Shown here: piece by piece, positions 12,589 through 64,000 of the stretch
Numbering within the stretch: position 1 is the stretch's first letter
Layout: every line of letters starts with the position of its first letter
Assembly (NCBI GenBank): GCA_016871495.1
Contig: VHDF01000015.1
Coordinates: 1-64,000 of the forward strand
From: Verrucomicrobiota bacterium
GTDB lineage: Bacteria > Verrucomicrobiota > Verrucomicrobiia > Limisphaerales > VHDF01
Length of the DNA stretch: 64,000 bases
Direction of reading: 5' to 3'
Notes under the pieces: model-generated
What the model was told of the DNA's origin: nothing
The model's database searches: none
What the model saw: only the letters and a program-made list of their open reading frames with translations
Translations under genes and position numbers: made by a program

Positions 12589-13092
12589 ATGATCAAACGA
12601 CTTATCTTGATTTTCGCCTTCACCTCGGGCCTCAGCGTTTCGTCAATTAAAGCCGCGGAGCTCTTCCTCCAAATAGACGGGGTAGATGGTGACGCGAAAG
12701 AAAAGTCCTATGAAAAGCACATTGTTGCGGACTCCTATCAGTTGGATTTCCAGACTCGGGGCACCTTCCGATTCGCTTTTGGGAAATCCCTTGATATCGC
12801 CACGGTGCCTCTGATGCTGAATGGCGCCAGCGGCAAGGCAATCAAGAGTGTTGTCCTCCGGGTGGCTGAGCGTGCAGCCACCGGCAGGCGTGATATTTAT
12901 GTGGTGACCCTCGAAGGGGTCACGATTGAATCCGTGGGTTCTTCCGGCCAAAGCGGTGGTGGCACGCCCCGGGAGTCGTTCTCACTCAAATACAACGTCG
13001 TGCGCTGGGATTACAAAGCCTATGGCGCGGATGGCAAACTCTTGAACTCCGTCAGCGCGGGCTGGCATGTCACCGAAAACCGCCCGCTTTGA
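12589..13092 (+). CDS. Sec-exported Hcp-like (type VI tube protein family) protein
   Basis: From ATG 12589 the product is 167 residues; the ATG at 12538 overlaps pxpA but would add 17 residues before the signal peptide. After the signal peptide (MIKRLILIFAFTSGLSVSS to AA) comes LFLQIDGVDGDAKE, then VVLRVAERAA, YVVTLEGVTIESV and SFSLKYNVVRWDY. These are the strand pattern and landmarks of the Hcp family (PF05638). True T6SS Hcp proteins lack a Sec signal and sit in T6SS loci; none is seen here. The protein is therefore probably a periplasmic or extracellular Hcp-fold ring protein of unknown role, paired with the next gene. Confidence 0.75.
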   Translation: MIKRLILIFAFTSGLSVSSIKAAELFLQIDGVDGDAKEKSYEKHIVADSYQLDFQTRGTFRFAFGKSLDIATVPLMLNGASGKAIKSVVLRVAERAATGRRDIYVVTLEGVTIESVGSSGQSGGGTPRESFSLKYNVVRWDYKAYGADGKLLNSVSAGWHVTENRPL

Positions 13093-13159
13093 GCATCGTC
13101 GGCGAATCGCGCCGGTCGCCATCACGGACGAATTTCGAATGCACTTTGGTTCCAGCCGT

Positions 13160-13948
13160 ATGAATCCACAATGCGCCCTGCCCTGCTTGCGCCACCCTTC
13201 AGCCCAGTGGTTTCGCTATGCCGCGGTTCTGAGCATCCTCTGGGTTTCCTGCCATCCCCTCTTCGCCCAGTTGCAGGGATTCATGCGAGTCGGAACCATC
13301 GCCGGCGAAGTCAAGACCTCGACCCACCTCGATTGGAGCGGTTTTGACGCTTCGAGCCTCATCCTTTACCGGCCTCAAGGAAGCCCACGGGTGCAAGCCA
13401 CCTCCGCTTCCTTGTCCAAGCCTTTGGACCGTTCTTCTCCCCTGCTCCACAAAGCTTGTGCCTCCGGGGAAACATTCGCCACCGTCAAGATCGACCTGGC
13501 CCAACCCCGGAGTGGAGCGCCGCTGCTCGTCGTTTACCAACTTATCCTCGAGAACGCCCGCCTTTCCTCCATCAACCAGTCCGGTTCAATCGACGGTGTT
13601 TCGGAATCCTTGGCCATCGATTTTACCAAGTTATCCTGGACCACCCGGCTGCTTTCCACCAACGGGACGGTCGTCAATAAAGGGGCCTTCTGGGATATCG
13701 CGCGGAATCTGGGCGGAGAAACGCTGGGGGAACGCTTCGAAGTCTATGGACTCTCGCTGACCTCCGGCGGCGTTCAGCTGGCCTGGCCCGCCCACCAAGG
13801 ACAGAAATTCAAGATCCTCGGCAGCGCGAAGGTCGAAGGCCCTTATCAATTGGTGCGCGAAATCACCGCGGCGGAAACCGGCGGCCTCGAGATCGTGCTT
13901 CCACCCACTGAACCTTCCTTTTTCTTCAGCGTCCTCAGAGAACTTTGA
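13160..13948 (+). CDS. Second Sec-exported Hcp-like protein with C-terminal extension
   Basis: The start is uncertain; ATG 13160 (262 residues) leaves a good signal peptide ending HPLFAQ. Residues about 40-180 follow the Hcp pattern (FMRVGTIAGEVK, FATVKIDLAQ, YQLILENARLSSINQSG, ESLAIDFTKLSW), though more diverged than in the preceding gene. The remaining 80 residues (LAWPAHQGQKFKILGS through FFFSVL) resemble a small C-terminal beta module common on verrucomicrobial exported proteins. It starts 67 bases after its neighbour's stop, so the two form a tandem pair likely expressed together. Function unknown. Confidence 0.65.
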   Translation: MNPQCALPCLRHPSAQWFRYAAVLSILWVSCHPLFAQLQGFMRVGTIAGEVKTSTHLDWSGFDASSLILYRPQGSPRVQATSASLSKPLDRSSPLLHKACASGETFATVKIDLAQPRSGAPLLVVYQLILENARLSSINQSGSIDGVSESLAIDFTKLSWTTRLLSTNGTVVNKGAFWDIARNLGGETLGERFEVYGLSLTSGGVQLAWPAHQGQKFKILGSAKVEGPYQLVREITAAETGGLEIVLPPTEPSFFFSVLREL

Positions 13949-39055: not shown

Positions 39056-40273
39056 CTATTGCGGCGGTGTTGGCTGTGTCTTGCCGCCGGAGTTCTTGCC
39101 GGATTTTTTTGCGGCGTTCTGCTTTGCTTTCTGGGCGGCTTTCGTGGTTTCCTGCCCGGGAATGGGGGATTGGCCGTCGAAAAACCGGTTCACTTCCTCA
39201 TCTTTGAACGATTCCGGTGTCATCTTCAAATTCGAGCTCTCCACCTGCGACATCTTCGCGAGCTCGGACGGATGTTGAATCACAAAGGGCGTCAGGAAGA
39301 TCAGCAGTTCCGTGCGAGTGTCCGCCTTCACTTTGCGCTTGAACGCGTAGCCCAGGAGCGGGATGTCGCCGATCAAAGGGACCTTGCGATCCTGGTCGGT
39401 CTTCTGTTTCTCAATCAATCCTCCGATGACGACCGTGCTCCCGTGCGGAGTCACGACGACGGTGTCGGCGGATCGCTTGTCGATGACGGGCGAATTGACG
39501 GTGTCCGAAATCGGAACCGTGCGGTCGCTCAACGAGGAAATCTCCGGAGTCAGGATCATTTCCACCAGCCCATCGGATGTGATGAAGGGGGTGACGCGGA
39601 GGATGATGCCAATGTCCTGGTATTGCACGGTGTTGACCGTCTGTCCTTGATCGGTGATGCGCGAGTTCGTGATGAAGGGCACCTCCTGGCCCACGATGAT
39701 CGTCGCTTGCTGGTTGTTCCGGGCCAGGATGGACGGGCGTGAGAGAATTTCTGTTTTCCCGGCGACCGACAGGCCGCGCAACACCACTTCCAAATCGTCT
39801 TTTAGAACTCCGTAAGTGCCTCCTCCAAAGGCTTGCTGCGCGGCGCCCAATCCGAAGTTGGACAGCGCGTTATTGGTCATGCCGGATCGAGGCTTGTGGG
39901 TGATGCTTCCTTCCACGCCGAAATCCAGGTTGTCGCCGTGGGTGACCTGGGCGAACACCACCTTGATGAGCACTTGCGGCTTCGGACGATCGAGACTCTT
40001 GATGACGGTCTTGATGCGTTCGTTTGTTTCGTCGTCGGTGACGATGATTAACTGCCGCGTCTCCGGATCCGAGGTGATCATCGCGTCACCCACCATCGTG
40101 CTGTTTTGATAATCTCGCGCCCCCCCTAAACCACCTCCCCCGGCCCGTGCTCCCCCGGTGGTGGCTCTCGTGGTCGCGCGTTGTTGAGCAAGAGCGTCGA
40201 CGGTAAACGTGGCCAGTACCACGGCCAGCAACACCATCCGCATCCCCGATCTGCTATTAGGCTTCATGATCAA
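39056..40273 (-). CDS. Type II secretion secretin, C-terminal half
   Basis: The 405-residue protein carries a signal peptide (MRMVLLAVVLATFTVDALAQ), a last N-type subdomain (QLIIVTDDETNERIKTVIKSLD) and a complete secretin domain: PQVLIKVVFAQVT, QEVPFITNS, QYQDIGIILRVTPFI, VVTPHGSTVVIGGLI and KVPLIGDIPLLGYAF. It should oligomerise into the outer-membrane ring of the T2SS. It lacks the N0-N1-N2 domains, which are encoded by the preceding gene (32 bases apart), so the secretin is split. The C-terminus is Lys/Ala/Gln-rich. The gene symbol gspD would apply to the pair. Confidence 0.9.
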   Translation of the reverse strand: MIMKPNSRSGMRMVLLAVVLATFTVDALAQQRATTRATTGGARAGGGGLGGARDYQNSTMVGDAMITSDPETRQLIIVTDDETNERIKTVIKSLDRPKPQVLIKVVFAQVTHGDNLDFGVEGSITHKPRSGMTNNALSNFGLGAAQQAFGGGTYGVLKDDLEVVLRGLSVAGKTEILSRPSILARNNQQATIIVGQEVPFITNSRITDQGQTVNTVQYQDIGIILRVTPFITSDGLVEMILTPEISSLSDRTVPISDTVNSPVIDKRSADTVVVTPHGSTVVIGGLIEKQKTDQDRKVPLIGDIPLLGYAFKRKVKADTRTELLIFLTPFVIQHPSELAKMSQVESSNLKMTPESFKDEEVNRFFDGQSPIPGQETTKAAQKAKQNAAKKSGKNSGGKTQPTPPQ

Positions 40274-40305
40274 AAATCCTTTCGCGAATCATTCTCCTCG
40301 GGCCC

Positions 40306-41976
40306 TCAGCGGAACCCGCCTCCACCGCCGCCCCCACCCCCCCCAAACCCGCCTCCGCCCCCGCCTCCGAATCCCGATCCGAACGCGTTCCCTTGTTGTC
40401 GGCTGGTGTTTTGCAGCCGGTTCTGCAACGCGTTATTCTGCTGGCTGTTCAGGCTGGTGTTGCGGGAATTCTGCGACTCAAAGAGGTTTCGCAGAACCGT
40501 TTCCACTTCCGTCGAATCGGCGTTGTCGAGCGAGTAAACGAACACTTTTTGTTTCCGGGCCGGATTCATATCCAATTGTTCGATCATCTCAGAAATCTGC
40601 GGCATCAACTCCTTGGCCGCGCTCACCACCACCGAGGAGGTGCGTGGGTCCGCCACGGCCAGCACTCGTCCCTGGCGTTTCTTCCGTTCGCTGTCGCCCG
40701 ACGCGGTGTTGTTGCCGCGACCTCCGCCCCCACCGCCGCCAAACGGAAACCCGCCCCTACCCCCGCCGAAAGTAAATCCGCCCCCTCTCGTATCCTGCGT
40801 GGTCGCCGTGTCGGGAAAGAGTTCCGACAAGAGTTCCGCCATTTCGGCCGGGTCGGAGTGCTTCAGAGTGAACACCCTTAACTCCGTGAGGTCTTGAACA
40901 TCCGTGTCCACCGACCGGATCAATTCCTCGATGGTCTGCATGAACTCCTCGGAAGCGTTCACAATGAGGGCGTTGCTGTGTTCGTCCGCGACCGCGACGA
41001 CCCGCTTGGCGGACGTTTGCGCCGTGCTGTTGCCACCGCGGCCTCCCCCACCCCCGCCGCCGCCACCAGCACCACCTCCTCCTCCAAAACCAGCCAAACC
41101 AGCTAACCCGGCCCGGCCCCCGAAACCTCCAAAGCCGCCAAATCCTCCGGCTCCCCCGCCGCGATTGCCCGTCGTGCTGTTGTCCTGGAACAGATCCCGA
41201 ATCGTGCTTGCCAGGGCCTTGGCATCGGCATAACGCAACGGAAAGACTCGAATCGTGGAAGCTCCTGCGACCGAAGTATCGAGCGCGGCGATGATCTCGG
41301 CGACGCGGCGGATATTGACCTGGGTGTCGGTGATCAGAATCGCGTTGCCGCCTTCGTTGGAAGCCACTGACGCGGTGGCCGGCATCAAAGTTTGCAGGTC
41401 GCGCAACAATTGCGGGGCGCTGATGTAGCGCACCGGAAGGATTTGCGTCACCATTTCCTCGTTCTTGGGTATCGAGTCCGGATTGCTGCCCGACTTGACC
41501 GGCACATTCTTCTTCTTGGCGTCGTCCTTCGACAAAACAGTCAAAGTGCGCCCCTCGCGCATGACCGCATAGCCGTTCTTGTCGAGCACCTTGGCCAGGA
41601 GTTCGATCGCTTCCGTGCGGGTCAGGGGTTGATGGCTCCAGATGTCCACGTTCCCCTTGACCTGCGTATCCAGCACGATGATGAAGCCCGCGGCCTCGCT
41701 CAAATAGTTCAACACCATGTCGAGCGGAACGCCTCGAAAATTAAGGCGAAGCTCCGCCTTCTCGGCCTCCTTGGTCTCGGCGGCCCCCGCGCGCTCAGGC
41801 TCGAGGGTGTTACCGCGCCTGGGCACTCGCCGGTCGCGTGCTTCATTGCCCTCCGCCGCCCCCTCGCGAACCGCCGAGGGGCGGGCGCCGCGGACAGACG
41901 GTTCGGATTCCTGGCTTCGGACAGCCTGCGGCAGTGCCATCAGTCCGCACACAAGCATCAGCATCGTGGTTTTCAT
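40306..41976 (-). CDS. Type II secretion secretin, N-terminal domains with polyglycine linkers
   Basis: The 556-residue exported protein has an N0-like domain (LRLNFRGVPLDMVLNYLSEAAG) and repeated N1/N2-type secretin modules (QILPVRYISAPQLLRDLQTL; IRVFPLRYADAKALASTIRDL; LRVFTLKHSDPAEMAELLSEL; VFVYSLDNADSTEVETVLRNL). The modules are linked by Gly/Phe-rich tracts, and the protein ends in a polyglycine tail; there is no secretin pore domain. Together with the next gene it would reconstitute GspD. The ATG overlaps the stop of the upstream gene (ATGA). Such split secretins are unusual in textbook T2SS, though multi-gene variants occur in PVC bacteria. Confidence 0.88.
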   Translation of the reverse strand: MKTTMLMLVCGLMALPQAVRSQESEPSVRGARPSAVREGAAEGNEARDRRVPRRGNTLEPERAGAAETKEAEKAELRLNFRGVPLDMVLNYLSEAAGFIIVLDTQVKGNVDIWSHQPLTRTEAIELLAKVLDKNGYAVMREGRTLTVLSKDDAKKKNVPVKSGSNPDSIPKNEEMVTQILPVRYISAPQLLRDLQTLMPATASVASNEGGNAILITDTQVNIRRVAEIIAALDTSVAGASTIRVFPLRYADAKALASTIRDLFQDNSTTGNRGGGAGGFGGFGGFGGRAGLAGLAGFGGGGGAGGGGGGGGGRGGNSTAQTSAKRVVAVADEHSNALIVNASEEFMQTIEELIRSVDTDVQDLTELRVFTLKHSDPAEMAELLSELFPDTATTQDTRGGGFTFGGGRGGFPFGGGGGGGRGNNTASGDSERKKRQGRVLAVADPRTSSVVVSAAKELMPQISEMIEQLDMNPARKQKVFVYSLDNADSTEVETVLRNLFESQNSRNTSLNSQQNNALQNRLQNTSRQQGNAFGSGFGGGGGGGFGGGGGGGGGGFR

Positions 41977-42761
41977 GGGTTCAATTCCTTTTGTCGTTTC
42001 TCAAGCAACCGTTTCAAAATGTCGTTTTCTCCCCCACTCGACGCGGGGGCCGCGGGAGCGTCGGAGGACACCGGGACCACCTCCGCCTGGGATGGCTTGG
42101 ACCATGCCCCCTGATCTTCCCGCTTCATCTGTTCACCCACTTTCATCTCAAAACCGGCCCCGTCCTTTTCCAACTTGACCCCCGAAGGCTCGATCGCTTT
42201 GACCCTAAATCCAGCGATCGAATCGCCCACCTTCGCGGGCTTGCGATAGGAGGACGCGGCACTCACGAAAAACGCCACGGGACCCTTGTCGTAGCTCATC
42301 GTGCCCCCGAGGGAAAACGTCTCAACGACCGGTGTCCGCCGCGCGGGGCCGTTCGTGGAACGTCCGGCACGGGGTCCGCGATTGGCGTTAAAAATATTTT
42401 TTCCAAGGAGGATCTTGAAGGCGTCGAGGCCGGCAGAACCATTCGTCGCGGAGGTCGCCTCGGAAGAGACGGCATGGGTGGTGGAAGGCTCGGCACCCGC
42501 TCGACGGTCGCGTCCACGGTCTCGGTCCCGATCTCGTGATCTCCGCCCAGATTCGAGATTCGTGGACCCGGCTTCTACGACCTGGAGTGCGCCTGGAGCC
42601 TCGGACTCTGCGGCAGCCGCGTTCGATTCCAAACCCCCGAGAAGAATGGACAACAGGGGCAGCAAAAGAATCCGGATCGGGCATCCCCGAATTGGGATCG
42701 AAGATCGCCTGGTGGCCGGGAGAGCCCGTTTCGACAAAGGGTGGCAAAACGTCATGTTCAA
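41973..42761 (-). CDS. GspC/PilP-like inner-membrane component of T2SS
   Basis: The 262-residue protein has an N-terminal hydrophobic segment (IRILLLPLLSILLGGL), an Arg/Asp-rich spacer (RRSRDRDRDRGRDRRAG), then a beta domain: LLGKNIFN, ETFSLGGTMSYDKGPVAFF, KVGDSIAGFRVKAIEPSGVKLEK and FEMKVGEQM. This matches the homology-region pattern of GspC/PilP, which links the inner-membrane platform to the secretin. Its place directly before the secretin N-domains supports this. Start and stop both overlap neighbours by ATGA. Sequence identity to classical GspC is low, so the assignment is by position and pattern. Confidence 0.7.
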   Translation of the reverse strand: MNMTFCHPLSKRALPATRRSSIPIRGCPIRILLLPLLSILLGGLESNAAAAESEAPGALQVVEAGSTNLESGRRSRDRDRDRGRDRRAGAEPSTTHAVSSEATSATNGSAGLDAFKILLGKNIFNANRGPRAGRSTNGPARRTPVVETFSLGGTMSYDKGPVAFFVSAASSYRKPAKVGDSIAGFRVKAIEPSGVKLEKDGAGFEMKVGEQMKREDQGAWSKPSQAEVVPVSSDAPAAPASSGGENDILKRLLEKRQKELNP

Positions 42762-43297
42762 GGCTTTCGTTCCAGAGGTGCGAGGCGCAGTCCGCTCACC
42801 ACCAGGGCAAGGGCGATTTGGCTGCCTTCGGGATCACGCGAGGTCAATTCAAGCGATTCGATGCGCAACGCCATGGGAGATCGCTCGACCTCATGGATGA
42901 ACTTCGTCAACGAGGAAAGCGATCCCGCCGCGTCGATCCGGCATTCCAAGCTCGAGTAATCCTCAGAGGCTCCGCGTTTCCATTGCGGGTGAAGGGAGAT
43001 GCCCACGGAGGTTTCATCTGACCACTGATAGAGGGACTTCAGCAACTCCTGCTCGGCTTGGGAAACATTCGCTGGAAGCGTGTTCTTCCGCATTTCATTC
43101 CAACGGCGATTCGTTTCCTGCTCCCGTTCGATCAGCATCGAGCCATTCGCAATGGACTTCCGAAGTCCATCGATCTCTTCCGTCCGCTTCTTCCAGGTCG
43201 CGGCCAGGGGCGAAAGGACCAGCTTGTCGGCCGCAAACAGGGCGACCACGGCGATAGCGCCGACGGCTAGGAACTGTTGTCGTTGAGAGGGAGTCAT
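42758..43297 (-). CDS. GspM/PilO-like inner-membrane component of T2SS
   Basis: From ATG 43297, coupled to the previous stop (ATGA), the protein is 179 residues: a single N-terminal helix (FLAVGAIAVVALFAADKLVL), a coiled-coil (KKRTEEIDGLRKSIANGSML) and a small ferredoxin-like domain (SLECRIDAAGSLSSLTKFIHEVE, RIESLELTSRD). This is the topology of GspM/PilO, which pairs with GspL/PilN. A longer frame to 43318 only adds a Gly-rich leader inside the upstream gene. Confidence 0.75.
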   Translation of the reverse strand: MTPSQRQQFLAVGAIAVVALFAADKLVLSPLAATWKKRTEEIDGLRKSIANGSMLIEREQETNRRWNEMRKNTLPANVSQAEQELLKSLYQWSDETSVGISLHPQWKRGASEDYSSLECRIDAAGSLSSLTKFIHEVERSPMALRIESLELTSRDPEGSQIALALVVSGLRLAPLERKP

Positions 43298-44727
43298 GGT
43301 GTCGAGGCCTCCCCCCACTGGAAGGTAAAGGTGAATTGCATCGGTGCTTTGCCTCCAATTTGACCGACTTGTACCTGGGCCACGTCTTTCATGCCACGGA
43401 GTTTTTCAATCGTTTTGAGCAAAGAAGCATGGTCCTTCGCGGTGCCGGCCACCGTCACGCGCTGCGCATTCTGAATGTCGATGCTCTTGGCGGAGACGCT
43501 GCCCTCGTCCGGAAACGATTCCGCCAGCCTCTTCATGACCGCCAGATGATCGGGCTGCGCGCTGAACCACGGACGGAATTTGCGGATCACGGTCTGCGTC
43601 TCCTCGATGCCACCCACGCGGGACTTCATTGCATTCCATTCGGATTGCAGCGACTGCCATTGCAGATACTGTGCTCCAAAAGCCACGAGCGCGAGAACCA
43701 ACAAGGCGGCGCCTGCCGCACCCACACCCGCCAGACGCTTGCCGGAATAGCGCGCCGCCCACTTTTGCATCCAAGTCGCCCGCGGAGGCAGAAACTCGAG
43801 TTGCCCCTCCATTCCGGCGAGATACTGGCCGGCCAGGGCAAGCTCAGGTGTCATCGGCGGCCTGGACGAGAGTTTCAACCCATGAAGGGATCCGCCCTGG
43901 AATTCCTCGTAAGCGACGCGCAGTCCCAAAGACTGAACGGCTGCGGGCAATTCATCCGCGAGTTCGCGGCCCCCCGGAGCCTTTCCCGTCAAGCGAAGTG
44001 TGTTCAGCCGAGACCGCAATTCTTCGGGCAATGCGCGGAGGGTGATCCGCAATTCCCGGGCGAGAAGTTCGGCTTGCCACCGCCGCCGGCCACCTTCCTC
44101 ATCCACCAACCCGTCCAAAACGCGCAGGGCGACAATGCCGCCGGCAGCTCCCACCAGAACCTCCGCACGCTGATCATGCAGCAGGATGGTGATCTGTCCA
44201 CTGCCGTCGGCGGGGACCACTTCCGGCAAGGCCGTGAGCGAGGGTCGGAATCCCTCGGGCTTGAGCCCCGCCGCCTCCAAGCAGGCCTCCAGTTTCGCGA
44301 CATACTCTCGTGGAACACCGAACTGGGTGGCAAACTTGGCCCCCGGCCCTGCCGACATCCTTGAGGACGCCACGACCAGTTCTGAAACATCCCTCGCGAA
44401 GCTCCGCTCGGCCTCGAGGGCCAGGAACTCCGCCACGTCTCCTTCCTCGATGTCAGGAACCCGAGTGTGCAGAGCCAGCACCCAGGAGGCAGGCAGGTTC
44501 ACCACGCATCGGCGCTCCTTCACCCCGGCGGCATCGAGCACCTTGCGAATCTCCCGTCCCACCAGCTCAGGCTCGTTCTTCAGCAAATCCATGGCCAGCG
44601 GTCCTCCGCCTTGCTCCCGGATCTCCAGCGTGGAGCCCGACCGCCGGATCACGACTGCGCCGAGTCTTCCGTGGTCCAGGTCCAGTCCCAGCAATGGATG
44701 GGCCCTTGTTGTCATCGACTTCGTCAT
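43294..44727 (-). CDS. GspL-like protein (PilM-like actin fold fused to PilN-like part)
   Basis: From ATG 44727 (ATGA with the previous stop) the protein is 477 residues. Residues 10-330 are an actin-like PilM/GspL domain (LLGLDLDHGRLGAVVIRRSG, RRCVVNLPASW, ITILLHDQRAEVLVG). A single helix follows (LAGVGAAGAALLVLALVAFGA), then a coiled-coil and a PilN-like periplasmic domain (FPDEGSVSAKSIDIQNAQRVTVAGTA). It should bind GspE in the cytoplasm and GspM in the membrane, transmitting ATPase motion to the pseudopilus platform. Confidence 0.85.
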   Translation of the reverse strand: MTKSMTTRAHPLLGLDLDHGRLGAVVIRRSGSTLEIREQGGGPLAMDLLKNEPELVGREIRKVLDAAGVKERRCVVNLPASWVLALHTRVPDIEEGDVAEFLALEAERSFARDVSELVVASSRMSAGPGAKFATQFGVPREYVAKLEACLEAAGLKPEGFRPSLTALPEVVPADGSGQITILLHDQRAEVLVGAAGGIVALRVLDGLVDEEGGRRRWQAELLARELRITLRALPEELRSRLNTLRLTGKAPGGRELADELPAAVQSLGLRVAYEEFQGGSLHGLKLSSRPPMTPELALAGQYLAGMEGQLEFLPPRATWMQKWAARYSGKRLAGVGAAGAALLVLALVAFGAQYLQWQSLQSEWNAMKSRVGGIEETQTVIRKFRPWFSAQPDHLAVMKRLAESFPDEGSVSAKSIDIQNAQRVTVAGTAKDHASLLKTIEKLRGMKDVAQVQVGQIGGKAPMQFTFTFQWGEASTP

Positions 44728-46100
44728 CGTCTTGCCTGTCGTTGGTTGTGCAATCGTTCGCGGGTCTCCACGCCTAGCGCCCAACCCAATGAGGTCAAGT
44801 CCCGCTGATACATTACCCTGGGCTCGCTGCCACTGTTGTCGAGCACGTAACGAATCCTTCGATATCCCCGGGCGTGACGCCCCACGGCGGCAATATCGAC
44901 ACTGAATTGATGGCTTTCCCCGGTCAAAAAGCGTCCGGCTCGAATCGCGCCCTGTTCATCCAAAACCTCGGTCACCCAGGCCATGGAATTCAATCGATTC
45001 GGATTGGCCATGCGAAAGGCCACCAACCCGGGCGCTTTCTCGGGTCCGATGCCTGGCACGCAACTCAACACGGCCTCGCTCGCCGTGTTCACGTTGATCA
45101 GCCCGGTGGCTCCATTTCCCGTCGCCACGGTTAAATTGGTTTGAATCTGGGCGAATTCGTCGGCGGTCATGCGACTGCGCACGTAGAATTCGAGCACGCT
45201 ATTGAAGTTGCCTCCCCCGGCGAGCGCGGCTTGCAGTTCACGCCCGCGATCCTCCCCAAACTTTTCCGTCAACAACCGCGTCAATTCCTGCCGGCCCGTG
45301 TTGAGATGGATGCGGCGGCTTCCATCCGGCAGGGTCAGCGGCTCGTTCGAAGACACGGTCACATACTCGAACAACCCGGCGTCGAGCCTTCCGTCGCGAT
45401 TGTCGTAGGGAGGCGACTGATCCCCATCGTCCTCATTGGGATCCAGGACTCCATTCAAATTAAGGTCCTCTCCAAAAAGAACCTCCAGTTCGGCTCCCGC
45501 CACGAGGCGGAGTTCCTCCAGCGATTCAAAGGGGGCATTTTTGCACCGGCGGGGAGGCTGAAACCGCGCATACACTTCGTTTTCAGCCCCGTTTTCCGAG
45601 GGCTCCGAATCGGCGTCCCGCCAATCCACGATCGCGCCAGCCAACTGGGGCGTCATGCCCGGCAGTGCTTCCAGCATCGCCGCGGTGGCGGTATTCAGGT
45701 TCAGCTTCGACGCTTCATCCACCACCCCAAACACCGGCTCATCCAGGCGCCGAGGACGATCTCCACGCCCGATGAACCAAAACAACGAATCGCCAACCGG
45801 AACTTCCTCCGGACGACAATCCCGCGGGTCCGGCAGCAATCCGTTCGTCCCATATTGCACCAAGTAGTGCTGAAGGTAACGCAAACCGCCCTGAATCGCA
45901 TACTCGGCTTGAAGACCCGCCACGCGCTGATCCGCCGCCTTCAGCTCATGGCTCGTCGATTGGGCGAAATACAACGCGAGACTGACCAACCCGAACGCAA
46001 CCCAGAGCACTAGAATCAACACCGAACCGCGCTGCGAATACCCGGCGCTTCCCCGCCCTGCCCCCGCCATCGTTTGGAAGGGAGTATGCAAACGCTTCAT
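44724..46100 (-). CDS. gspK: Type II secretion minor pseudopilin GspK
   Basis: From ATG 46100 (ATGA with gspJ) the protein is 458 residues. The start has a prepilin-like helix (GSVLILVLWVAFGLVSLALYFA) lacking Glu5, as in GspK. The large body includes KLNLNTATAAMLEALPGMTP and GLINVNTASEAVLSCVPGIG, the helix-hairpin-helix-like repeats of GspK, and an EF-hand-like DLNLNGVLDPNEDDGD that could bind calcium. GspK caps the pseudopilus tip with GspI and GspJ. It is larger than the E. coli protein (about 330 residues), mainly because of an insertion around the EF-hand-like segment. Confidence 0.9.
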   Translation of the reverse strand: MKRLHTPFQTMAGAGRGSAGYSQRGSVLILVLWVAFGLVSLALYFAQSTSHELKAADQRVAGLQAEYAIQGGLRYLQHYLVQYGTNGLLPDPRDCRPEEVPVGDSLFWFIGRGDRPRRLDEPVFGVVDEASKLNLNTATAAMLEALPGMTPQLAGAIVDWRDADSEPSENGAENEVYARFQPPRRCKNAPFESLEELRLVAGAELEVLFGEDLNLNGVLDPNEDDGDQSPPYDNRDGRLDAGLFEYVTVSSNEPLTLPDGSRRIHLNTGRQELTRLLTEKFGEDRGRELQAALAGGGNFNSVLEFYVRSRMTADEFAQIQTNLTVATGNGATGLINVNTASEAVLSCVPGIGPEKAPGLVAFRMANPNRLNSMAWVTEVLDEQGAIRAGRFLTGESHQFSVDIAAVGRHARGYRRIRYVLDNSGSEPRVMYQRDLTSLGWALGVETRERLHNQRQARR

Positions 46101-46816
46101 GATCCCCCTCCCCCCGCGGAGCTGGTGGTATTCGTCGTCGATTGCACCAGGATGGCGGAGACCACCTCGATGGGTTCGGCCACCGGCCGGCCCCGTTCTT
46201 CTTCGGGGCGCAGGAAGATTCTGACTTTCACGCCGAGGGGAAGATTGGTGCTCTGCGTCGTGTCCCAAACCTCGGACCATTCGTATCCGTTGTAAAACAG
46301 CGCGACCGCATGCTCCACATTCTCAAGCAAGACCGCCGTCTCCAGGTCTTCCGTGGTCACCGGCAGCAGGTTTCTGCTGGTCACCCGCACCAAATCAAAG
46401 CCCGGTGCCGGAGGGGTCGGGTTCGCTAAAAAATACGCGACCTTCTGGACCTCGCCGTACGGACTCCACTCGTCGATCGAACCCGTGGTGGTGTAAAGGT
46501 CGGGCGTCACGCGGCGGCCCGCGGCGTCCATCAGACTTCCACTCGAGGTCGTGAGGGTTTGGAACGTGCCCGACAACACGCCTCCCGGCAGCATCAACCC
46601 GGAAAGGTCTCGCCGGATCAACGCGATCGTCTGTTCGAGGGGCAACGCTCGTTGGGCCGCCTCCGCCGCCTTGTTCCGCAATCGCAGGGTCGCAAAATAC
46701 ACGCCATTGATCGCGACGAGCACGACCGCGAACACGGCCAGGGCCAGCAACAATTCCAGGAGCGTAAAAGCCGCCCGCCCCCGCCCGCTGGCTTGCGGTC
46801 GAATCCCCGCTTTCAC
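46097..46816 (-). CDS. gspJ: Type II secretion minor pseudopilin GspJ
   Basis: The 239-residue protein has a prepilin leader AAFTLLELLLALAVFAVVLV with Glu5, an LxxxxxxL-rich helix (AAEAAQRALPLEQTIALIRRDLSG) and a beta-rich C-terminal domain (VQKVAYFLANP, LVRVTSRNLLP, VEHAVALFYNGYEW, GVKVRIFL), matching GspJ. It overlaps gspI at its start and gspK at its end by 4 bases each. It forms the tip complex with GspI and GspK. Confidence 0.88.
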   Translation of the reverse strand: MKAGIRPQASGRGRAAFTLLELLLALAVFAVVLVAINGVYFATLRLRNKAAEAAQRALPLEQTIALIRRDLSGLMLPGGVLSGTFQTLTTSSGSLMDAAGRRVTPDLYTTTGSIDEWSPYGEVQKVAYFLANPTPPAPGFDLVRVTSRNLLPVTTEDLETAVLLENVEHAVALFYNGYEWSEVWDTTQSTNLPLGVKVRIFLRPEEERGRPVAEPIEVVSAILVQSTTNTTSSAGGGGS

Positions 46817-47265
46817 AGTGTCCCTCCTCGGCTGGAGGTCGTCACCCCCAGGAATGTTTCCGGATCAACCAGCGTCGTCAGCGTGGCGTCATACTCCTGT
46901 CCCTGGGCGTCGAAAAACACCTGCAGGGTCACTTCGGTCAAGTTCTCGAACGGCCAGGGCTCGGTTCGCAATCGCCACCGGTACTCACGACCGCCCTCCC
47001 GCACCATCCCGCTCTGAGTTGCGGATAAAAGTTCGCGCGTGGCGATCATTTCCTGAAGCAATCGGTCGCCAATGCGGGCGGCCGCCGAGCGCCTCTCCCC
47101 CACCTGGCCCGCCAGACCGGCGACGCGAACGGCCTGCACAGCGACCGGAATGACGATCGCCATGAACAGCAACGCGGCCAGCACCTCGGCCAGCGTGAAT
47201 CCCGCGCTCGCTCGTCTCTCAACGCCGAAGCCGGATCCGCTGCATCTGGTTGGTTTGAATTTCAT
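46813..47265 (-). CDS. gspI: Type II secretion minor pseudopilin GspI
   Basis: The 150-residue protein shows the prepilin motif ASAGFTLAEVLAALLFMAIVIP and the GspI arrangement of a long helix (RRSAAARIGDRLLQEMIATRE) followed by a small beta domain (YRWRLRTEPWPFENLTEVTLQVFF). Its start overlaps gspH by 47 bases and its stop overlaps gspJ by 4, a compact arrangement that supports one polycistronic message. Confidence 0.87.
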   Translation of the reverse strand: MKFKPTRCSGSGFGVERRASAGFTLAEVLAALLFMAIVIPVAVQAVRVAGLAGQVGERRSAAARIGDRLLQEMIATRELLSATQSGMVREGGREYRWRLRTEPWPFENLTEVTLQVFFDAQGQEYDATLTTLVDPETFLGVTTSSRGGTL

Positions 47266-47821
47266 AACTCAGGCTACTGCGGGTCAGCCCGATTCGCACT
47301 TCACTGTTCTCGCCTTCGCGAAACACCACGCTCTCCGGACTCGACATCGCAATGAATCCGTCGGGCGTGAATACCATGGCCGGAAGTAATCCCATCACGG
47401 GCCGGGCCGATTCCCGGCTTGACCGGCTTACCGGCGCCTGGAAGCCGCTCCGACCTAACCGCTCGACTTCCATCACAACGTCCTTCCCCAATTCATATTC
47501 CACCGCGCTCTCATCCTCGCGCCGCTCGAATCCGCTCTGCCTGGTCAATCCATAGCGCCGCTCTTTTTCGTCCATCCACAGCACCATCGGCACTCCTTCC
47601 CCCGTCGCCCGGCTCTGCGCGTAACGTGTGAGGGAAAGAAACCGCCGGGCTTCGGAGTCCGGTCCACGCCCCTTGAAAAACCGGGCCAATTGCGGAGCGG
47701 CGAGCGAAGTCACCACGGTCAACAGCGCCATCACCAGGATCAATTCGATCAGGGTGAACGCCGCGCCCGCCCGCCGCTCAACGCGACTTGGAGCTGCTCC
47801 AGTTGGTAATGTCATCTTCAC
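47219..47821 (-). CDS. gspH: Type II secretion minor pseudopilin GspH
   Basis: The 200-residue protein has the leader GAAFTLIELILVMALLTVVT with Glu5. A GspH/FimT-like domain follows: EARRFLSLTRYAQSRATGEGVPMVLWMD, then strands, with VVFREGENSEVRIGLTRSS near the end. GspH sits between the major pseudopilin and the tip complex. Its start overlaps gspG by 44 bases. Confidence 0.86.
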   Translation of the reverse strand: MKMTLPTGAAPSRVERRAGAAFTLIELILVMALLTVVTSLAAPQLARFFKGRGPDSEARRFLSLTRYAQSRATGEGVPMVLWMDEKERRYGLTRQSGFERREDESAVEYELGKDVVMEVERLGRSGFQAPVSRSSRESARPVMGLLPAMVFTPDGFIAMSSPESVVFREGENSEVRIGLTRSSLSYEIQTNQMQRIRLRR

Positions 47822-48251
47822 TGCCCGCCTTGCCGTCCGGACCGGGCGACATCAAGTCATAAGAAGTGGGATTGTTCCTGCCGGGGCACTCATAGACATA
47901 CGCGGCGCCCCACGGATCCACGGGAATTTCGTTCTTGAGATAGGGCCCCTTCCAGCTTTGTGCGTCGCGCGGCGCCGTCACCAGCTCCTGCAAGCCGTTT
48001 TTCCCCTTGGGATAATAGCCGTTATCAACCTCGAAGGCGTCCAAGGCTGTGCCAAACGTGGCAATCTGCGATTTCGCGGCCGTGACACGCGCTTGTTCTG
48101 TGCGTCCCGAAAACTTCGGAACCACAATCGCCGCCAGCACGCCCAAAATGACAAGCACCAGCAGCAGTTCAATGAGGGTGAATCCGGCGCGAGACGCACG
48201 GTCCGTCTGAAGACGGGGTTTGGAGGATAGGCGCATAATCGAAAAGTTCAC
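47778..48251 (-). CDS. gspG: Type II secretion major pseudopilin GspG
   Basis: The 157-residue protein carries the classical leader [25 protein letters not shown], followed by KSQIATFGTALDAFEVDNGYYPKGKNGLQELV, WKGPYLKN and IPVDPWGAAYVYECPG. The C-terminal SPGPDGKAGSEDDITNW includes the acidic GspG calcium site. It builds the pseudopilus shaft. The leader would be cut by a prepilin peptidase, which is not encoded in this window. Confidence 0.95.
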   Translation of the reverse strand: MNFSIMRLSSKPRLQTDRASRAGFTLIELLLVLVILGVLAAIVVPKFSGRTEQARVTAAKSQIATFGTALDAFEVDNGYYPKGKNGLQELVTAPRDAQSWKGPYLKNEIPVDPWGAAYVYECPGRNNPTSYDLMSPGPDGKAGSEDDITNWSSSKSR

Positions 48252-49552
48252 TTCACATGGTCCTGCAGGCTGAAGATCGGGATCACCATGCCGATAAAAA
48301 TAATCCCGATGAAACCCGCGATGAAAAAAAGCATGAGGGGCTCAGCCAAGGCGACCGCCGACTTCAACTGCCGGTCCAGATCGCCCTCCGTAACCTGGGC
48401 CAGCCTCACCAGTTCATGGTCCAGCTTCGCGCTCTCCTCCGCCACCGAAATCATTTCCAGCGTCGAGCCATTGAACAAGACGCGGCATTGGCCCAAACTG
48501 CCGGCGAGCGATTTCCCCTCCTTCACACTGTCGATGGACGCCGCGACGGCATCGACCAGTATTTGATTCCCGATCGACCGGCGTGCCACGTTCAACCCCC
48601 CGATCAACGGCACCCCGGCGCCAAGCAGCGTGCCCAGCATCCGGCAAAATCGCGCCATCGCAAACTGAGCGACCAGACTCCCGATCACCGGTATTCTCAA
48701 GATGGCCCCCTCCCAAACGCGCCGCCCCCGCTCGGAAAGAAACCAGCTGCGAACGAGGTAGCCGACCAAGGCCAGGCCCAAAGCGATGAACAACCCGTAG
48801 CCGCGCATGAACTCGCTGACGGACACGATCAACTGCGTCAATAACGGCAGCTTGGCGCCAAAACCCGCAAAGATGGTCTGAAAGCGCGGAATGAAAAAGA
48901 CGAGCAGAAAGATCAAAACCGCCAGCGCGAGCACGAGCAAAATGGTGGGATACAACAAGGCGGTCATCACCTTGCCGCGCATCTCCTTCTCGCGCGCTTG
49001 AAAATCCGCGATCTGCCCCAGCACGACGTCCAAAAATCCACCCGTCTCCCCGGCCTCCACCATCGCCACATAAACCCGCGGGAATACCCCGGGCGCCTTG
49101 GCCATCGAGTCGGTCAGCGAGACGCCGTCCACCACGGAATCATGAATCTCTTTCCACTGGGCGCCCGCAGTCGGTGAAGCCGCCTCGCGCTGCAAAATCA
49201 CCAACGCCCGGCTCAAAGGCACTCCCGCCGCCAGCAAGCTCGAAAGCAACCGGGTGAAATTCTCCAAAACCCTCGCCGTAATCTTCTGGCTTCCCAGGCT
49301 GAACGACCCGGGCTTCAAGGCCGGAGCCGGATCTGCAGCCGGGGCCGTCCGCTTCTCGGGTCCCCGCCCGCCCGCCGGCAATGCCCCCGACTTGGCCGCA
49401 GCCTTGCCCATGGCGGATCGCTCCGCCAGCTTGAGAGGCCGCAGCCCCATCGCCTCAAGCTGTTTGAAGGCCTCCTGGCGTCCGCCTGCCTCCAGTTCCC
49501 CTTCACGGGTGGACCCGTTCTCAGCCAGTCCTTTGTAGGCGAAATACGGCAT
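48248..49552 (-). CDS. gspF: Type II secretion inner-membrane platform protein GspF
   Basis: The 434-residue protein has the short N-terminal domain (MPYFAYKGLAENGSTREGEL) and two T2SSF modules, each with FxRxLxxLLxAGVPLxxAL (FTRLLSSLLAAGVPLSRAL; FCRMLGTLLGAGVPLIGGL). Membrane helices follow (TILLVLALAVLIFLLVFFIP; GLFIALGLALVGYLV; LMLFFIAGFIGIIFIGMVIP). It anchors the ATPase and pseudopilus assembly. An unusual Lys/Ala/Pro-rich insert lies at about residues 50-85. The stop overlaps gspG by 4 bases. Confidence 0.95.
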   Translation of the reverse strand: MPYFAYKGLAENGSTREGELEAGGRQEAFKQLEAMGLRPLKLAERSAMGKAAAKSGALPAGGRGPEKRTAPAADPAPALKPGSFSLGSQKITARVLENFTRLLSSLLAAGVPLSRALVILQREAASPTAGAQWKEIHDSVVDGVSLTDSMAKAPGVFPRVYVAMVEAGETGGFLDVVLGQIADFQAREKEMRGKVMTALLYPTILLVLALAVLIFLLVFFIPRFQTIFAGFGAKLPLLTQLIVSVSEFMRGYGLFIALGLALVGYLVRSWFLSERGRRVWEGAILRIPVIGSLVAQFAMARFCRMLGTLLGAGVPLIGGLNVARRSIGNQILVDAVAASIDSVKEGKSLAGSLGQCRVLFNGSTLEMISVAEESAKLDHELVRLAQVTEGDLDRQLKSAVALAEPLMLFFIAGFIGIIFIGMVIPIFSLQDHVK

Positions 49553-49563
49553 AACGAGGGCGC

Positions 49564-51315
49564 CTAAGCGTTCGCTTCGGATTCCGCGACCGCCAGCATG
49601 GGGCTTGTGTCCCCCGAGGCGTCCCCAACGGATTGATCTTTCGTAACCCGCAGGACCTCCTCAGGCGTGGTGTGCCCCAGGCCCACCAGCCGCCATCCAT
49701 CCTCGGCCAGCGTCCGCATGCCCGATCGCACCGCGGCTTCCCGAATCTCGCCGCTCGAGGCGTTCTTCAAAATCAATTGCCTCACCTCGAACCCCGCATC
49801 CATCCATTCAAAGATCGCGCGCCGCCCGTGATAACCGGTGTTGCGACATTCGCGACAACCCACCGCCTTGAAAACGGCAGCCTCAGCCGCCAAACCCGCG
49901 GAGATTTTGAACGACGCCGTCGTCGGGGAGCAGTCCGCCACCTTGCAATGCGGACACAAAACGCGAACCAGGCGCTGGGCGAGCACCGCCTCCAGCGACG
50001 AAGCCACCAGGTAAGGCTCGACCCCCATGTCCACCAACCGGGTCAACGCACCCGGTGCGTCATTCGTGTGCAAGGTCGAAAACACCAAATGACCTGTGAG
50101 CGAAGCTTGCACCGCAATCTGAGCCGTTTCCCGATCGCGAATTTCACCGATCAACACCACGTCAGGATCGTGGCGCAAGACCGCCCTCAGCCCGCGCGCA
50201 AAAGTAAGACCCGCTTTCTCCGAGACCTGAATCTGATTGATGCCGCGCAGTTGATACTCGATCGGATCCTCGATGGTGATGATCTTCCGGACCGCGTCGT
50301 TGATCTCGTTCAGCGCCGTGTAAAGCGTGGAGGTCTTGCCGCTCCCCGTCGGCCCCGTCACGAGCACGATGCCGTGCGGCAATCCCAACACACGGCGAAA
50401 ACTCCGGAGCGGCCTCGCGTCCAGCCCCAATTCATTCATGCCTCGCAGCGTTGAATTCTGCCTCAACAAACGCATCACCACCGCCTCGCCATGAAGCATC
50501 GGAATCACCGACACGCGAATATCCACTTCAGCCTCGTCGATGCGGACCTTGATGCGGCCGTCCTGTGGGAGCCGTTTCTCGGCAATGTTGAGATGACTGA
50601 GAATCTTGACGCGTGACACAATGGCCGGCTGGAAGCGCTTGATCTGCGCCGGCACCGGAACCTCCTGCAGCACACCGTCAATGCGATAGCGAATGCGAAG
50701 TTCGTGCTCGAAAGGTTCGAGGTGAACGTCGGACGCTCTCAACTCAATCGCGTCTTTCAACACCTGGTTGACGAAACGGATGATGGAGGCGTCCTCGGCA
50801 GCGTTGTCGAGATTCGTGCCCTCTTCTTCCCCTTCGCGCACCACCTCGAGTCCGGCGGCCACATCCAGGGTGTCAATGGTGTCCGCCCCGACACCGAGGC
50901 GCTTCTTCATTTCGCGCTGCACCGCTTCCCGCGGCGCCAGCACCGGCTCGAGCCGAAGCCCGGTCATCGTCTTGAGCGCGTCCAACCCCTCGGTGGCAAA
51001 CAGACGGCTTGTGGCAATCTCCACCCACCCATCCACGCGCCTCAGCGGAAGCAGCTCTTCCTTCAGCAACAGCCGGGCCGGGAAAAGGGAGAGGACCTGT
51101 TTGTCCGGCTCCACATCTTCCAGCGTCGTGAACTCGAGCTCGTATTCGTCCGCCAGCCAGCGGAGGACGCTTTCCTCGGTCGCCGCCAGGCCCCGGCCAG
51201 ACCGCACGGAGCTCAGGGCGAAGGCCCGCGCGTCCGGCTCCGTCAACTGCCGTCCGGCGACCAAACGCTCCAGGAGCGCTCGCAACTCCGCACTCTCGAT
51301 GTCAGGCAGAGGCAT
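49564..51315 (-). CDS. gspE: Type II secretion ATPase GspE
   Basis: The 583-residue protein has N1E-type domains (residues 1-150), the SDVHLEPFEHELRIRYRIDG region, a Walker A GPTGSGKTSTLYTAL near residue 320, an Asp box (KIITIEDPIEYQL), a Walker B-like DPDVVLIGEIRDRETAQIA and a His box (LTGHLVFSTLHTNDA). A four-Cys zinc module (CPHCKVADC...CRECRNTG) marks GspE rather than PilT. It powers pseudopilus assembly. It lies 11 bases upstream of gspF on the same strand. Confidence 0.96.
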   Translation of the reverse strand: MPLPDIESAELRALLERLVAGRQLTEPDARAFALSSVRSGRGLAATEESVLRWLADEYELEFTTLEDVEPDKQVLSLFPARLLLKEELLPLRRVDGWVEIATSRLFATEGLDALKTMTGLRLEPVLAPREAVQREMKKRLGVGADTIDTLDVAAGLEVVREGEEEGTNLDNAAEDASIIRFVNQVLKDAIELRASDVHLEPFEHELRIRYRIDGVLQEVPVPAQIKRFQPAIVSRVKILSHLNIAEKRLPQDGRIKVRIDEAEVDIRVSVIPMLHGEAVVMRLLRQNSTLRGMNELGLDARPLRSFRRVLGLPHGIVLVTGPTGSGKTSTLYTALNEINDAVRKIITIEDPIEYQLRGINQIQVSEKAGLTFARGLRAVLRHDPDVVLIGEIRDRETAQIAVQASLTGHLVFSTLHTNDAPGALTRLVDMGVEPYLVASSLEAVLAQRLVRVLCPHCKVADCSPTTASFKISAGLAAEAAVFKAVGCRECRNTGYHGRRAIFEWMDAGFEVRQLILKNASSGEIREAAVRSGMRTLAEDGWRLVGLGHTTPEEVLRVTKDQSVGDASGDTSPMLAVAESEANA

Positions 51316-63379: not shown

Positions 63380-64000
63380 TCAATGAATCTTGAGCCGGTA
63401 GAACCTGGATACACCGGATAATTCTCGATCCAGGAATTCGCCTCGTTCTTGGTCAACGTCGAATTCCACGAAAGGTCGCCCAATACCCTCTGATCTTTCG
63501 ACGGTGTATTTTCTCCCGGGTTCAATAGTCCATCTGAGGTGAAGACCGTCGGAAATTCGAGTCCATTGGATTGGAGTCGGGCGAACGAGTCCCAAAGCTG
63601 GCAGCCCGTAGGATCTCAGGTCATATTGGAAACCGGGAGAAAAGGCGCGGGACGAAACCGCCGCATGGTTGGTGAATGCGCCGGACGGAGAAGGGAATCG
63701 GGTCCACGATCCATTGGAGGGCACGGAATCGTAAACCACTCGGGAGACCAATCGGCCTTCGGGATTGCGCAACTCGATGGAATCTCCTCCGCCATTGTTC
63801 AAACCCAGGCCGGCGGAACCTTCGCTGGCAGGGACCGCGGGTATTTCAGCCGCTAAGCCTGCTCGGCCGAGGGGTCCCCCATAGACCACGACGGCATTGG
63901 ACGATCCCACCACGTAGGGTTCGACGAATCGGTGCCGCAACCGGGCGCTGTCTGACAGGCTCCACCCGGCCAAGTCCAGACTCACTTCCGTGAGATTGAC
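63380..64000 (-). CDS. Lamin-tail-domain protein, C-terminal part (runs off the window)
   Basis: The frame is open to the window edge at 64000, so the N-terminus is missing. The visible 206 residues begin with a lamin-tail domain (VNLTEVSLDLAGWSLSD, VVGSSNAVVVYGG, GGGDSIELRNPEG) followed by a C-terminal module (LHLRWTIEPGRKYTVERSEG, SRFYRLKIH) of the sort found on large exported verrucomicrobial proteins. These proteins are often surface-associated, sometimes with CotH domains. Bases 63230-63379 between it and the zinc-ribbon gene show no feature. Confidence 0.75.
   Translation of the reverse strand, partial: VNLTEVSLDLAGWSLSDSARLRHRFVEPYVVGSSNAVVVYGGPLGRAGLAAEIPAVPASEGSAGLGLNNGGGDSIELRNPEGRLVSRVVYDSVPSNGSWTRFPSPSGAFTNHAAVSSRAFSPGFQYDLRSYGLPALGLVRPTPIQWTRISDGLHLRWTIEPGRKYTVERSEGIGRPFVEFDVDQERGEFLDRELSGVSRFYRLKIH

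What the first reader, a model, noticed from the sequence alone, without database searches (positions are those of the whole stretch)
12589..13948. Tandem Hcp-fold proteins with Sec signal peptides and no type VI genes
Canonical Hcp is cytoplasmic and stacks into the T6SS tube. Here two diverged Hcp-like proteins carry Sec signals and sit behind the 5-oxoprolinase genes, with no T6SS component in 64 kb. They may form periplasmic or extracellular rings, serve as adhesins, or act as carriers through the T2SS. I regard this as a good candidate for an undescribed exported system.
Basis: partly seen in the sequence, partly recalled or inferred. Interest (0 to 1): 0.65.

Follow-up and report, generated by a model that had tools for sequence, protein, structure and literature searches.

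The report
Exported tandem Hcp proteins without T6SS
Two neighbouring genes make ring-type proteins normally found only in the bacterial type VI injection machine, but here both carry export signals, the genome has no such machine, and the same gene pair recurs across the phylum, so this looks like an undescribed exported use of a familiar part.

Summary
Both ORFs match Pfam T6SS_HCP well above cut-off, and AlphaFold models match Hcp crystal structures (Z 21.6 and 20.3). Both start with Sec-type signal peptides. They are the only Hcp genes in a 97% complete genome that lacks TssC, TssK and a VgrG-type spike. The pair is not a local oddity: I found 28 such tandems in 25 genomes of the phylum, always short A then long B. 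A crude scan calls signal peptides in 25/28 A and 26/28 B, but in 0/18 Hcps lying beside TssC. None of the 25 genomes has TssC. B always has a long C-terminal tail (101-615 aa; 24-26 in T6SS Hcp). In 21 of 28 it ends in a ~70-aa module that this genome reuses at the C-terminus of about 20 other ORFs. The 5-oxoprolinase neighbours are not conserved. Best reading: a Sec-exported, T6SS-independent Hcp pair, probably forming rings outside the cytoplasm, with B sorted or attached by its tail. Export (by prediction) and independence from a T6SS are well supported; rings, location and function are inferred. No description was found in the open-access papers searched.

The parts
12589..13092 (+). Gene A: exported Hcp-fold protein, 167 aa
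   Evidence: PF05638 2e-15; AlphaFold pLDDT 90.7, Z 21.6 to Hcp
12589..12654 (+). Predicted signal peptide of A (MIKRLILIFAFTSGLSVSSIKA)
   Evidence: Sequence, crude scan; low-confidence leader in the model
12664..13014 (+). Hcp domain of A, strand 2-3 stacking loop cut to 8 residues
13160..13948 (+). Gene B: exported Hcp-fold protein with C-terminal tail, 262 aa from this start
   Evidence: PF05638; model; Z 20.3 to Hcp1 5xhh
13160..13267 (+). Predicted signal peptide of B
   Evidence: Sequence; helix 13-30 in the model; crude scan
13280..13642 (+). Hcp domain of B
13736..13945 (+). C-terminal module of B, shared with about 20 other ORF ends in this genome

Best explanation
The two genes form an operon for a Sec-exported, T6SS-independent pair of Hcp-fold proteins. 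Shown by sequence and models: both are Hcp domains behind signal peptides, the genome has no T6SS, and the A-then-B architecture is conserved across the phylum. Inferred: after the signal peptides are removed the proteins fold in the periplasm into Hcp-type hexameric rings, either mixed A/B or A rings with B at the end. B's C-terminal module then sorts or attaches the ring to the envelope or cell surface, as it may do for the other ORFs that end in the same module. In this genome the short stacking loops of both proteins argue for single rings or short stacks rather than long tubes.
For: Hcp fold of both. Signal peptides in 25/28 A, 26/28 B, 0/18 T6SS-linked Hcp. No TssC, TssK or PF04717 in the genome and no TssC in any of the 25 genomes with the pair, among them two single-contig genomes. 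Fixed order A then B, median gap 28.5 bp. Tail on every B, with a module reused at ORF ends in this genome. Paralogous Hcps can share one ring: PDB 9vne, Hcp2-Hcp3 heterohexamer (listed). Many A proteins keep the full stacking loop.
Against: No oligomer was modelled or measured. The signal-peptide rule is home-made, not SignalP. The window's pair is among the most diverged (A 28.6%, B 26.2% to the nearest T6SS Hcp) with short loops, so ring formation is least certain here. The role of the C-terminal module is guesswork. Some B proteins end in other domains.
Confidence: 0.45

Rival explanations
1. They are exported monomeric or weakly oligomeric beta-barrel proteins: an Hcp fold reused as a binding module, for example an adhesin or a glycan- or matrix-binding surface protein.
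For: B tails carry TSP3 repeats, He_PIG and LamG domains typical of surface proteins. Strong divergence and shortened stacking loops in B and in the window's A.
Against: Two adjacent Hcp copies in fixed order, and one B with two Hcp domains, are easier to explain by a multi-subunit ring. Many A proteins keep the loop, and some keep about 60% identity to T6SS Hcp.
Confidence: 0.25
2. They are carriers or chaperones: rings that hold a secreted cargo and leave the periplasm through the type II secretion system of the window.
For: Hcp is described as a receptor and chaperone of effectors (PMC5874247). A T2SS-like operon lies at 39056-51315 and the genome has five secretins.
Against: No cargo gene travels with the pair in the window's order. 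No tool here tests T2SS dependence.
Confidence: 0.17
3. They are tube proteins of a T6SS missed in the assembly, or relics of a lost one.
For: The Hcp domain is homologous to T6SS Hcp, and some A proteins are about 60% identical to a T6SS Hcp of the same order.
Against: No TssC, TssK or PF04717 in a 97% complete genome. The pair has spread over the phylum with signal peptides and a B tail, always without TssC. A decaying relic would not keep two open exported frames in 25 genomes.
Confidence: 0.04
4. The signal peptides are an artefact of start-codon choice and the proteins are cytoplasmic.
For: Start codons in draft genomes are uncertain, and B has several candidate starts.
Against: Leaders recur in nearly all of 56 diverged proteins and in none of 18 T6SS Hcps processed the same way.
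Confidence: 0.03

Closest known systems
T6SS tube protein Hcp/TssD (PF05638, TIGR03344; e.g. 1y12, 4tv4, EvpC 3eaa)
   Same: Same fold and Pfam family
   Different: Signal peptides, no T6SS in the genome, below NCBIfam's TssD cut-off, stacking loop shortened, and B has a long tail. PMC2944823 states that T6SS Hcp homologues contain no classical signal peptide
Paralogous Hcp heterohexamer of Bacteroides fragilis (Hcp2-Hcp3, PDB 9vne)
   Same: Two different Hcp proteins that may build one ring; related fold (Z 12.2 to A)
   Different: That pair belongs to a T6SS by its title; here no T6SS exists and oligomerisation is untested
C-terminal sorting domains of secreted proteins (T9SS CTD as recalled; not compared here)
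   Same: A ~70-aa module reused at the extreme C-terminus of many ORFs of one genome
   Different: No Pfam or NCBIfam match for the window copy; no transport role tested

Membership tests
T6SS tube protein Hcp (TssD) | Hcp fold / PF05638 | tested here: met
   2e-15 and 4.6e-14; Z 21.6 and 20.3
T6SS tube protein Hcp (TssD) | Score above the curated TssD cut-off (TIGR03344, 58.9 bits) | tested here: not met
   18.2 and 31.7 bits
T6SS tube protein Hcp (TssD) | No signal peptide (made and assembled in the cytoplasm) | tested here: not met
   Leaders on both; 0/18 T6SS-linked Hcps have one
T6SS tube protein Hcp (TssD) | T6SS sheath, baseplate and spike genes in the genome | tested here: not met
   No TssC, TssK or PF04717
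T6SS tube protein Hcp (TssD) | Long strand 2-3 loop that stacks rings | tested here: not met
   8 residues in A, 14 in B, against 21-24 in T6SS-linked Hcp; role of the loop from PMC4650826
T6SS tube protein Hcp (TssD) | Hexameric ring | not testable with these tools
   Only single chains could be predicted
Phage or eCIS tail-tube protein | Fold closer to phage or eCIS tubes than to Hcp, with sheath or baseplate genes | tested here: not met
   Hcp chains score Z 17-22, phage and eCIS tubes 9-11; no PF04717 in the genome
T2SS substrate | Sec-exported and released through the secretin | not testable with these tools
   A T2SS-like operon is present in the window but dependence cannot be tested

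The most novel reading that the evidence does not exclude
A phylum-wide, Sec-assembled extracytoplasmic Hcp structure: A and B form mixed rings or short tubes on the cell surface, held there by B's shared C-terminal module, with no contractile machine. This would be an independent use of the Hcp tube outside any injection system.
Probability: 0.3. Interest if true: 0.8.

Novelty: new variant of a known kind. Interest (0 to 1): 0.6.

Why it matters
Hcp genes are readily taken as a sign of a T6SS. In this phylum 25 genomes here carry Hcp pairs with no sheath gene, so such a call would be wrong in them. If the exported proteins form rings, the tail-tube fold has been reused outside the cytoplasm without a sheath or baseplate. 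The shared C-terminal module may point to a sorting route for large secreted proteins in this phylum.

Tried and rejected
Mutual exclusion of the pair and T6SS was considered and dropped as a statistical claim: at these frequencies zero overlap is expected by chance (about 0.5-0.7 genomes expected per set). The usable point is that the pair does not need a T6SS. A tree of 86 Hcp domains was poorly resolved (43 of 83 inner branches open), so the number of origins of the exported pair is unknown. The genome-contig scan with window B found nothing and an alignment of diverse B proteins was too diverged to search. A scan with three closer B proteins named Luteolibacter pohnpeiensis (L114) and a Verrucomicrobiia MAG (L120); the other hits inspected were Hcps without such a pair. 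The window's own species could not be named. Neighbour comparison found no gene travelling with the pair in most loci. Fold lists for B are filled by its Hcp domain, so the fold of the C-terminal module was not properly tested.

Full report
Observation. ORF A (12589-13092 +) and ORF B (likely start 13160, end 13948 +) lie in tandem about 67 bp apart. Both match Pfam T6SS_HCP (2e-15 and 4.6e-14, over twice the cut-off in bits) but stay below NCBIfam's TssD cut-off. They also match solved Hcp chains by sequence. AlphaFold gives A at pLDDT 90.7 and B at 80.5. Against the PDB, A matches Hcp 4tv4 at Z 21.6 and B's Hcp domain matches Hcp1 5xhh at Z 20.3, well above phage and eCIS tube proteins at about Z 9-11. 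Both begin with a Sec-type leader.

No T6SS. In the whole genome (G000, 5.06 Mb, 97.1% complete) these two are the only PF05638 matches. TssC, TssK and the VgrG-type PF04717 are absent; each of these searches rings in the E. coli control.

A phylum-wide pair. Among 97 genomes of the order, 22 have PF05638 and 6 have TssC. Among 388 genomes drawn from the phylum the numbers are 33 and 15. Reading the loci splits the Hcps cleanly. Class T (18 proteins) sits beside TssC; in the six order loci read in full, five or more other proteins are shared among the clusters, as expected of a T6SS. Tandem exported pairs (28 loci, 25 genomes) sit alone, and none of these genomes has TssC, including the single-contig genomes G348 and G415. 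A crude rule (basic n-region, hydrophobic core, small residues at -3 and -1) calls a signal peptide in 25/28 A, 26/28 B, 7/7 of a third class of single exported Hcps, and 0/18 T. The A and B misses look like signal peptides by eye. The short protein always comes first and the long one second, with a median gap of 28.5 bp. After the Hcp domain A has 18-32 aa, T has 24-26 and B has 101-615. Luteolibacter pohnpeiensis KCTC 22041 is a named isolate with the pair.

The tail of B. Several B proteins carry bacterial TSP3 repeats, one has He_PIG and LamG domains, and one has two Hcp domains. In 21 of 28 the last ~70 residues align as one module (LxWxSxxGxxYxI...PF...FFRV). A profile of it finds 25 further places in the window's genome. 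In 19 of these the match ends within 15 aa of the stop codon (one search's count includes one truncated frame), and several others run on to the end by reading; the ORFs are up to 3,112 aa long. No Pfam or NCBIfam family matches the window copy; two of 21 members show a weak Pfam hit (Glyco_hydro_39_C, best E 0.0022). So B shares its end with many other ORFs, which fits a sorting or attachment module. That role is inferred, not shown.

Ring and stacking. In T6SS Hcp the loop between strands 2 and 3 contributes to ring stacking (PMC4650826). It is 21-24 residues in T, median 22 in A, median 16.5 in B, and 8 (A) and 14 (B) in this genome. B's loop is shorter than A's in 22 of 27 pairs (Wilcoxon p 0.0005; related sequences, so only indicative). 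Some A proteins keep up to 61% identity to a T6SS Hcp. I infer that rings are still made, and that B, and in the window also A, stack poorly. Paralogous Hcps can share one ring (9vne, listed). A mixed or capped ring is therefore plausible but untested.

Surroundings. pxpB, pxpC and pxpA upstream are not found beside the pair elsewhere, so they are probably just neighbours. The Fe/Mn superoxide dismutase downstream has a homologue near the pair in one other genome (L052), on the other side of it. Two other genes do recur. In six loci from the family of Luteolibacter a DUF7059-MTS-DUF7782 methyltransferase follows B directly or overlaps it. In four loci from four families a fused MFS/spermidine-synthase-like membrane protein adjoins the pair. 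By reading, A's leader follows these neighbours: '[IL][YFL]LLP[FL]' occurs only in the four, 'S[RKS][TS]LAL..P' only in the six, and genome G337 has one locus of each kind. This was seen after the fact, in small numbers, and the window's pair has neither. It is a lead that leaders are matched to partners.

Literature. Searches for Hcp with signal peptides or in Verrucomicrobia found no description. PMC2944823 says that T6SS Hcp homologues contain no classical signal peptide. Only open-access papers were searched.

Verdict. This is a real, conserved, T6SS-independent pair of Hcp proteins with export signals. It has the Hcp fold but fails four tested features of T6SS tube proteins, so it should not be filed as TssD. 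Function is open: surface ring (most likely), binding protein, or carrier.

Noticed in passing
G000 genome-wide; in the window 13736-13945 (+) and 63464-63559 (-): A ~70-aa C-terminal module (B's tail) recurs at the ends of about 20 other ORFs in this genome, up to 3,112 aa long, without a Pfam or NCBIfam name. It may be a sorting or anchoring signal.
   Followed up: partly
L098:9085-10527, L101:9053-10525, L103:9443-10930, L106:6557-8035 (-), L107:4809-6449 (-), L108:5765-7411 (-): In six tandem loci of the Luteolibacter family a DUF7059-MTS-DUF7782 methyltransferase with an NPP[FY] motif follows B directly or overlaps it.
   Followed up: partly
L049:5803-8028 (+), L095:7091-9622 (+), L097:9274-11547 (-), L100:9099-11573 (-): A fused MFS/spermidine-synthase-like membrane protein adjoins the pair in four loci from four families; exactly these four A proteins share an LLP[FL] leader.
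   Followed up: partly
L050, L051, L054, L057, L102, L104, L109: A third class of exported Hcps: single genes, one supported clade (98), with a 'SHEI.SPRD..SG..TGRRQH'-like stretch in most. In L051 and L054 a conserved ORF without Pfam match precedes it.
   Followed up: partly
window 39056-51315 (-): T2SS-like operon: secretin at 39278-39766, several ORFs with pseudopilin-like FTL(I/L)EL leaders, and likely GspF and GspE by reading.
   Followed up: no
L055:4961-6184 (-): A B protein with two Hcp domains in one chain (G072), so three Hcp domains in the operon.
   Followed up: no
L112:1-10000 (G331): A tandem of two short Hcp-like ORFs without signal peptides or tails, in a genome with no TssC match; not counted as a pair of this kind.
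   Followed up: no
L047:10273-11190: The B gene of G042 is split over two frames: a sequencing error or a broken gene.
   Followed up: no
L113 (G176:C2:301000-318000): Four consecutive diverged Hcp genes just downstream of TssC, none with a signal peptide by eye.
   Followed up: no
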